NCBI RefSeq assembly: GCF_900187135.1
Contig: NZ_LT906443.1
Span: forward strand, 434,001-498,000
Source: Corynebacterium ulcerans
GTDB lineage: Bacteria > Actinomycetota > Actinomycetes > Mycobacteriales > Mycobacteriaceae
DNA length: 64,000 nt
Direction of reading: 5' to 3'
This document shows, piece after piece, positions 14,691 through 16,087 of the stretch. The notes beneath the pieces were generated by a model. It did not search any database, was not told the DNA's origin, and was given only the letters and a program-made list of their open reading frames with translations. Every line of letters starts with the position of its first letter. The stretch's first letter is position 1. The translations under genes were made by a program, and so were the position numbers.

Positions 14691-15074
14691 CTAATTCTTA
14701 GCACCGAACTGGGGTATTCCTGCATGTAGAGTCTCAGAGCCAGAAGTACTTTGCGCAGGGATCGTACTCGGATTTCCTTCTATCTCGCCCGCAACGACGA
14801 TTCCAAGAAGAAGGAAAAGACCAAAAACAGCACCAGCAAGTACATTACTGGCGTGTTCCTTCCAGCGAGGAACCGCTGTGGTTAACAAACTCCGCCACTC
14901 TTTGTGGTTGCCTCTATTACGTCCAGATCCTTCATGCAAGGAAAGTGTACGAACATTCGTTTTAATATCACTGTTACGATTCGCGTCAATGTCCCAGACA
15001 TCCGACGCAGGAACAATTTGCGCTCGATTTACCCGAGAATCACTCATTTTTTGAGGGCGATAAGCCAGCGTCAT
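14691..15074 (-). CDS. divS: SOS-induced cell-division suppressor-like protein
   Basis: This 127-residue protein has a hydrophilic N-terminus, one membrane segment (ASNVLAGAVFGLFLLLGIVV, about residues 76-97) and a short Ser/Thr-rich tail predicted outside. Position, divergent from lexA and next to nrdR, is that of C. glutamicum divS, a LexA-controlled gene needed to block division during the SOS response and a functional analogue of YneA or Rv2719c. No LysM motif is visible, unlike the mycobacterial analogue. A GGAAG ribosome binding site precedes the ATG, and a near-consensus LexA box lies about 100 bp upstream. The name rests on synteny, topology and the LexA box. Confidence 0.72.
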   Translation of the reverse strand: MTLAYRPQKMSDSRVNRAQIVPASDVWDIDANRNSDIKTNVRTLSLHEGSGRNRGNHKEWRSLLTTAVPRWKEHASNVLAGAVFGLFLLLGIVVAGEIEGNPSTIPAQSTSGSETLHAGIPQFGAKN

Positions 15075-15169: not shown

Positions 15170-15183
15170 CGATCATATGTTCG
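15170..15183. promoter_or_regulatory. LexA (SOS) box between divS and lexA
   Basis: CGATCATATGTTCG differs at one base from the CGAAC-N4-GTTCG Gram-positive SOS box. Degenerate half-sites follow at 15190-15203 (CAATC-N4-GTTCG) and 15219-15232 (CGAAC-N4-GGTCA), suggesting cooperative LexA binding in the divergent promoter region. Confidence 0.7.
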
Positions 15184-15306
15184 AAGAATCAATCACACGT
15201 TCGATTTTTACACCTTTTCGAACAGACGGTCAAGTCTCTCATCCATTTTTTCGAACAGATCACCCTAAGAGCACAAAGATAAGCTAAGGTGAACAGCAGT
15301 AGAGGA

Positions 15307-15318
15307 CGAACACGTTCG
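15307..15318. promoter_or_regulatory. CGAACACGTTCG element upstream of lexA
   Basis: CGAAC and GTTCG arms are present but separated by 2 bp where a standard SOS box has 4. It may be a weak or accessory LexA site close to the lexA promoter. Confidence 0.3.
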
Positions 15319-15336
15319 CGGAGCATTAAAAGAACT

Positions 15337-15358
15337 CCCCCCCCCCCCCAAAAAAAAA
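15337..15358 (+). repeat. C13-A9 homopolymer tract before lexA
   Basis: Thirteen cytosines (15337-15349) run directly into nine adenines (15350-15358). The block ends 4 nt before the GAAGGG ribosome binding site of lexA. Such tracts are slippage-prone. It is non-coding, so length changes would alter spacing or transcript start, not the reading frame. Confidence 0.9.
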
Positions 15359-15379
15359 TCCTGAAGGGATATGACATCA

Positions 15380-16087
15380 ATGGCCAAACAATCAAATAAA
15401 CCGAACGCCACCGAGCCTGACCAGAAGAAGCTTTCCGAACGTCAGCGACGCATCCTTGAAGTAATCAGAGATGCTGTTGTTTTGAGAGGCTACCCACCAA
15501 GCATTCGAGAAATTGGAGATGCCGCAGGCTTGCAGTCCACCTCATCCGTGGCGTATCAACTCAAAGAGCTAGAAAAGAAAGGGTATTTGCGCAGAGACCC
15601 TAATAAACCACGCGCTGTCGACGTGAGAACACTGCCCGAATCCAGCACCCCTAAACCGGGCAGGAAACAAAACGCAAAGCCGAGCAAGTCGCCAGACCCC
15701 TCCGAAACTTCACCTACTAGCTTCATTCCTATCGTAGGATCCATTGCCGCAGGCAGCCCAATCCTCGCCGAAGAAAACGTGGATGCCTACTACCCGCTCC
15801 CCCAAGAGATTGTGGGAGATGGCGAGCTCTACATGCTCGAAGTCGTGGGCGAATCTATGCGAGATGCAGGCATCCTCAATGGAGACTGGGTAGTTGTACG
15901 TTCTCAGCCTGTTGCAGAACAAGGTGAATTTGTCGCTGCCCTCATTGACGGCGAGGCTACCGTAAAAGAATTCCACAAAGACTCTTCAGGAATATGGCTA
16001 CTCCCCCACAATGACGCTTTCTCACCAATCCCAGGTGACCAAGCAGACATCATGGGCAAGGTAGTCTCTGTTATTCGAAAACTCTGA
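15380..16087 (+). CDS. lexA: SOS repressor LexA
   Basis: LexA represses DNA-damage genes and cleaves itself when RecA filaments form. The 235-residue product has an N-terminal winged helix ([16 protein letters not shown], then [15 protein letters not shown]), a linker, and an S24 peptidase domain. The Ala-Gly scissile bond is in GSIAAGSP (about residue 123), the catalytic Ser in GESMRD (about 158) and the Lys in ATVKEF (about 195). Two starts are possible. ATG 15371 lies only 2 nt after GAAGGG, whereas ATG 15380 (MAKQSNK) has an 11-nt spacing and is preferred. LexA-box-like sites and a C13-A9 tract lie upstream. Confidence 0.95.

What the first reader, a model, noticed from the sequence alone, without database searches (positions are those of the whole stretch)
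15337..15358. C13-A9 homopolymer block directly before the lexA ribosome binding site
A run of 13 C followed by 9 A is rare in a coding-dense corynebacterial chromosome and is typical of contingency loci that vary by slippage. Here it lies between the LexA-box region and the GAAGGG site of lexA. If the promoter lies just upstream (TTAAAA at about 15325-15330 is possible) the tract would sit at the transcription start and could cause reiterative transcription. Otherwise it would vary leader length. Either could make SOS-repressor level heterogeneous between cells. The tract itself is seen; the effect is inference.
Basis: partly seen in the sequence, partly recalled or inferred. Interest (0 to 1): 0.72.

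Follow-up and report, generated by a model that had tools for sequence, protein, structure and literature searches.

The report
Long C-then-A run before lexA
A run of 13 C and 9 A sits in the predicted untranslated start of the messenger RNA for the DNA-damage repressor LexA; it looks like a young stretch grown by copying slips and probably unstable in length, and whether its length changes LexA levels is untested.

Summary
The tract is real in this assembly: C13 at 15337-15349, A9 at 15350-15358. It is the longest C/G run in the genome and exceeds composition-based chance. It lies in the predicted lexA 5' leader, 4 nt before GAAGGG; an in-frame stop follows it, so length changes cannot shift the lexA frame. 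The two relatives with an alignable leader (C. silvaticum, one unnamed) have C5 and no C-run there, so it probably grew in this lineage. A conserved TANNNT-like block puts transcription start about 45 nt upstream, which disfavours start-site stuttering (inferred). NucS is present and MutS not detected, so slippage is probably poorly repaired. Such runs are not lexA-specific: 26 C9A7 places in 19 of 242 Corynebacterium genomes, no A7C9. Best reading: a lineage-specific, probably length-unstable leader spacer of weak or no effect. A switch like the espR leader tract of M. tuberculosis is possible but unshown. No isolates or reads could be compared, so a length error in the assembly stays open.

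The parts
15337..15349 (+). C13 run
   Evidence: read directly; longest C/G run in the genome
15350..15358 (+). A9 run directly 3' of the C run
   Evidence: read directly; one of two A/T runs of 9 in the genome
15363..15368 (+). GAAGGG, likely ribosome-binding site of lexA, 4 nt after the tract
   Evidence: sequence; GGG pairs in the predicted fold with the C run (0.53-0.54) or UCCU 15359-15362 (0.37-0.46)
15371..16087 (+). lexA (238 aa from ATG 15371; the likelier start is ATG 15380, 235 aa)
   Evidence: TIGR00498, 228.3 bits against cut-off 110.95; PF01726 and PF00717; ATG 15371 absent in both relatives
15292..15379 (+). predicted lexA mRNA leader (88 nt; 78 and 74 nt in the two relatives)
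   Evidence: start inferred from the conserved TAAGCT block; not measured
15280..15285 (+). TAAGCT, candidate -10 element
   Evidence: 15280-15326 differs at 3 of 47 columns among three species; TANNNT consensus recalled; not found by the E. coli-type scan
15307..15318 (+). CGAACACGTTCG palindrome in the leader, small predicted hairpin
   Evidence: sequence and fold; kept in C. silvaticum, one base changed next to it in G043
15170..15183 (+). LexA-box-like site CGATCATATGTTCG (1 mismatch to CGAAC-N4-GTTCG)
   Evidence: pattern scan; loose matches are not in excess over shuffles; consensus recalled
14691..15074 (-). divergent 127-aa ORF in the position of divS
   Evidence: ORF list; no Pfam or NCBIfam match; assignment by position only (PMC3989709 passages)

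Best explanation
The C13A9 block is a lineage-specific homopolymer expansion in the spacer of the lexA mRNA leader, between a conserved promoter-proximal segment and the ribosome-binding site. Shown: its position, its absence from the two alignable relatives (C5 and no C-run), an in-frame stop between tract and gene, MutS not detected and NucS present. Inferred: it grew by replication slippage from a short C-run; its length drifts because small indels are not repaired; drift changes leader length but neither the reading frame nor the distance from ribosome site to start, so the effect on LexA is nil to modest. Its C-then-A order is the order in which composite runs persist in this genus, because A or T bases on the 3' side of a G-run seem to be lost.
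For: Relatives have C5 (C. silvaticum) and no C-run (G043) at the site. No other of 47 lexA loci read has a run above 7 in the 150 nt before the aligned start. MutS_V not found, control positive in 11 of 14; NucS found at 148.5 bits; NucS does not repair 1-2 nt indels in M. smegmatis (PMC11551767 passages). C9A7 places: 26 in 19 of 242 genomes, flanks unrelated except one pair. Leader not unusually folded, z 0.55.
Against: Only two relatives have an alignable leader, so the history rests on two outgroups. Length variation was not observed. The C-run is predicted to pair with the GGG of the ribosome site (0.53-0.54), which leaves room for a regulatory effect. MutL was not searched.
Confidence: 0.62

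Rival explanations
1. Phase-variable leader: tract length tunes lexA translation, for example by how the C-run competes for the GGG of the ribosome site, giving heritable, reversible differences in SOS repressor level between cells.
For: Precedent: one extra base in a G7 tract of the espR leader in M. tuberculosis raises EspR protein without more mRNA (PMC11898584, abstract and other passages). Predicted C-run to GGG pairing. MutS not detected.
Against: Tract absent from both relatives. GGG is also mostly paired in the C. silvaticum leader without a long run (0.8-1.0). Other C9A7 tracts lie at unrelated places, so no selection at lexA is needed to explain one. No variation or effect was seen.
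Confidence: 0.17
2. The tract, or its exact length, is a sequencing or assembly error.
For: Homopolymer indels are a known platform error; for one C. ulcerans genome (Ion Torrent, 2,442,826 bp, not the size of this one) they were corrected by software (PMC4357763 passages). No reads or second assembly could be compared here.
Against: The genome is a single contig; its other ten C/G runs of 9 or more are 9 or 10 long, not inflated; C. silvaticum has a C5 seed at the site.
Confidence: 0.15
3. Reiterative initiation: transcription starts at or in the tract and stutters.
For: A TTAAAA hexamer lies at 15326-15331, just before the tract.
Against: The hexamer is TCAAAC or TCAAAT in the relatives and is not TANNNT, while the TAAGCT block about 50 nt upstream is conserved. 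The E. coli-type scan found no plus-strand promoter in the stretch at all, so neither site has support from it.
Confidence: 0.03

Closest known systems
espR 5' leader homopolymer of Mycobacterium tuberculosis (PMC11898584, abstract and other passages read)
   Same: Homopolymer in the 5' leader of a regulator gene in an actinobacterium; possible effect through leader folding
   Different: espR tract is G7 at the predicted transcription start, 144 bp before the gene, with variation across many isolates and a measured effect; the lexA tract is C13A9 next to the ribosome site, with neither shown
Homopolymer phase-variable (contingency) loci, e.g. the poly-G promoter tract of Neisseria porA (PMC3639595, abstract start seen in a search listing)
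   Same: Long homopolymer in front of a gene, expected to slip
   Different: No length variation or on/off effect shown; the gene is a core stress repressor, not a surface antigen
GnT mutation hotspots (PMC12344412, abstract and passages read)
   Same: Predict loss of T on the 3' side of G-runs, hence survival of C-then-A and loss of A-then-C runs, as counted here
   Different: Described in Pseudomonas and Salmonella substitutions; Corynebacterium does not occur in that paper's main text, and the shortage of A on the 3' side of G-runs seen here is not covered in what I read

Membership tests
Homopolymer contingency (phase-variable) locus | Long pure homopolymer in or before a gene | tested here: met
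   C13A9, longest C/G run in the genome
Homopolymer contingency (phase-variable) locus | Length varies between isolates or cells | not testable with these tools
   one genome per species held; no reads
Homopolymer contingency (phase-variable) locus | Length changes expression | not testable with these tools
   no expression data; only the natural leader was folded
Homopolymer contingency (phase-variable) locus | Tract kept over related lineages | tested here: not met
   absent in the two relatives with an alignable leader; this feature is common but not strictly required
Reiterative-initiation promoter | Homopolymer at the transcription start | tested here: inconclusive
   conserved block suggests a start about 45 nt upstream; no mapped 5' end; scan found no plus-strand promoter
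LexA, SOS repressor | LexA DNA-binding and S24 peptidase domains over cut-off | tested here: met
   TIGR00498, PF01726, PF00717

The most novel reading that the evidence does not exclude
The SOS repressor itself is under heritable, reversible slippage control: C-run length sets how often the lexA ribosome site is masked, so a clone always holds cells with different LexA levels and hence different thresholds for mutagenesis and division arrest; a mutable tract would then control mutability.
Probability: 0.12. Interest if true: 0.75.

Novelty: new member of a known kind. Interest (0 to 1): 0.35.

Why it matters
If length matters, a mutable tract would control a regulator of mutability, in an actinobacterium in which MutS was not detected. 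If it does not, the tract is a neutral mark of slippage. Either way the polarity of composite runs in the genus (C6A6 79, A6C6 0 in 101 genomes) is a simple, testable footprint of directional mutation at the edges of homopolymers.

Tried and rejected
Rejected: tract coding for LexA, because an in-frame TGA lies at 15362-15364. Rejected: a conserved upstream ORF through the tract; the frame from GTG 15289 runs 36 codons and overlaps lexA, but the GTG lies before the predicted start and reads GTA in both relatives. Rejected: a mobile element or insertion motif behind C9A7; with 400-nt flanks the 26 places share no BLAST match except the pair L140/L142. The second C10A8 run of this genome (L002) lies among ORF fragments that look by eye like transposase remnants and is unrelated. 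Paper searches for lexA with 'homopolymeric tract' and for Corynebacterium with phase variation and homopolymer terms listed nothing that, by title and abstract start, concerns this tract; two searches listed 20 of 96 and 20 of 143 papers, and the library holds open-licence papers only.

The 101- and 51-genome sets are even draws from the 242 held. Numbers were retyped into for summing. One search printed minus-strand loci unturned and wrong offsets; one search replaced it. ORF distances come from a mechanical ORF scan and were not used for a count. My note says 33 nt for the distance in L133; searches give 32.

Full report
Observation. The block is as described: C13 at 15337-15349 followed by A9 at 15350-15358. 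No other run of 8 or more exists in the window. The genome (2,453,761 bases, one contig) holds 11 C/G runs of 9 or more; the other ten are 9 or 10 long. It holds two A/T runs of 9. Composition models give 0.0024 C13 runs in 64 kb and 0.05 in the genome, so composition is a poor account. Across the genus 49 of 242 genomes hold a C/G run of 13 or more (in some drafts partly contig-end sequence), so such runs are uncommon but not unique.

Where it lies. The gene downstream is lexA (TIGR00498, 228.3 bits against a cut-off of 110.95; LexA DNA-binding and S24 domains). A TGA at 15362-15364 closes the lexA frame between tract and gene. ATG 15380 is the better start: it stands 11 nt after GAAGGG and aligns with the relatives' starts, while ATG 15371 is absent in them. 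The tract therefore lies in untranslated leader, 4 nt before GAAGGG. On the other strand lie nrdR and a 127-aa ORF without a Pfam or NCBIfam match, which has the position expected of divS; the review PMC3989709 says that in C. glutamicum lexA lies close to SOS-induced genes and names divS cg2113 (passages).

Relatives. With window 15171-15500, 37 of 242 genus genomes match; besides the window's own, only G173 (82%) and G043 (80%) match through the leader, and the other 34 begin within lexA coding sequence. G173 is C. silvaticum KL0182, since its place equals that of L051. C. silvaticum reads C5 then AGCAAAC where the window has C13A9; G043 has no C-run there. Growth in the window lineage is the simplest history, from two outgroups only. 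Of 47 lexA loci read (L021-L067; one is the window, C. silvaticum appears twice), no other has a run above 7 in the 150 nt before the aligned start. No tool names the window's species; its LexA is 95% identical to that of C. silvaticum.

Promoter. From TAAGCT at 15280 to 15326, 47 nt differ at 3 columns among the three species. I take TAAGCT as the -10 element (TANNNT, recalled), which gives a start near 15292 and leaders of 88, 78 and 74 nt. The E. coli-type scan reports no plus-strand promoter here, so the start needs measuring. A LexA-box-like site lies at 15170-15183 (1 mismatch), but loose matches are not in excess over shuffles (209 against a mean of 246).

Structure. The natural leader is no more folded than its shuffles (z 0.55). 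The GGG of the ribosome site pairs with the C-run (0.53-0.54) or with UCCU 15359-15362 (0.37-0.46). In C. silvaticum the GGG is also mostly paired (0.8-1.0), in G043 less (0.2-0.7). The C-run could thus bear on translation, but a masked site does not need a long run. The folds are thermodynamic predictions of natural leaders only.

Mutability. MutS_V was not found in the genome (the same search rings in 11 of 14 control genomes); NucS was (148.5 bits). MutL was not searched. NucS of M. smegmatis does not repair 1-2 nt indels (passages of PMC11551767). Length instability is therefore likely, by inference. RNA polymerase may also slip on A9: in many bacterial genomes selection against A/T runs in coding regions is evident at nine (passages of PMC1088944). 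In an untranslated leader that would only blur leader length.

Not specific to lexA. C9A7 occurs at 26 places in 19 of 242 genomes and the reversed A7C9 at none. Flanks are unrelated apart from one pair. The lexA tract has the longest C-run of the 26. At shorter lengths: C6A6 79 against A6C6 0 in 101 genomes; C5A5 196 against A5C5 86 in 51; G6A6 2 against A6G6 29 in 101. At 4+4 no bias is seen in a small sample (window 3 against 4; 46 other lexA loci 4 against 5), which speaks against a simple rule acting at every length. Viral contigs agree for long runs: C9A7 at least 120 stretches and A7C9 18; A7G9 at least 120 and G9A7 26. In words: long A or T runs stand on the 5' side of G-runs and seldom on the 3' side. 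T after a G-run is a known T-to-G hotspot (abstract and passages of PMC12344412), which fits the loss of A-then-C; the shortage of G-then-A is not covered in what I read. The order of the lexA block is thus the order that persists, and needs no design.

Comparison. The nearest known case is the espR leader of M. tuberculosis: a G7 tract whose +1 variant raises EspR protein without a change of its mRNA (abstract and other passages of PMC11898584). The lexA tract could work like that, but variation and effect, the two features that make a contingency locus, are untested. Cell-to-cell SOS heterogeneity in C. glutamicum is known from a divS reporter after an iron shift (passages of PMC6173762); no tract is mentioned in what I read.

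Verdict. A real, lineage-specific, probably length-unstable leader tract, most likely of little effect (0.62); a modest chance of a true LexA-level switch (0.17); some chance of an error in the assembly (0.15); little for start-site stuttering (0.03).

Noticed in passing
Corynebacterium genomes and viral contigs: Strong polarity of composite homopolymers: C-then-A and A-then-G runs are common, A-then-C and G-then-A runs rare (C6A6 79 against A6C6 0 and A6G6 29 against G6A6 2 in 101 genomes). The first fits GnT mutation hotspots; the second is unexplained.
   Followed up: partly
L133 (G111), 1487-1517: C10A10G11 (read on the lexA strand) begins 32 nt after the stop codon of another species' lexA, a perfect hairpin of C and G with an A10 loop; a second composite run beside a lexA gene, probably coincidence.
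   Followed up: partly
L002 1501-1518 (G000:C1:1564136-1564153): The genome's only other C10A8-type run lies among overlapping ORF fragments that look by eye like transposase remnants.
   Followed up: no
15289-15399 +: A 36-codon frame from GTG 15289 runs through the tract and overlaps the lexA start; tract length would set whether it stays open. The GTG is not kept in relatives.
   Followed up: partly
15307-15318: CGAACACGTTCG, two LexA-type half sites with 2 instead of 4 bases between, conserved in the leader of three species; could be a hairpin or an odd operator.
   Followed up: no
L140 (G082) and L142 (G064): C9A9 and C10A7 in two species whose flanks match at 85-88% identity: the one case among 26 where a composite tract is shared or recurrent.
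   Followed up: no
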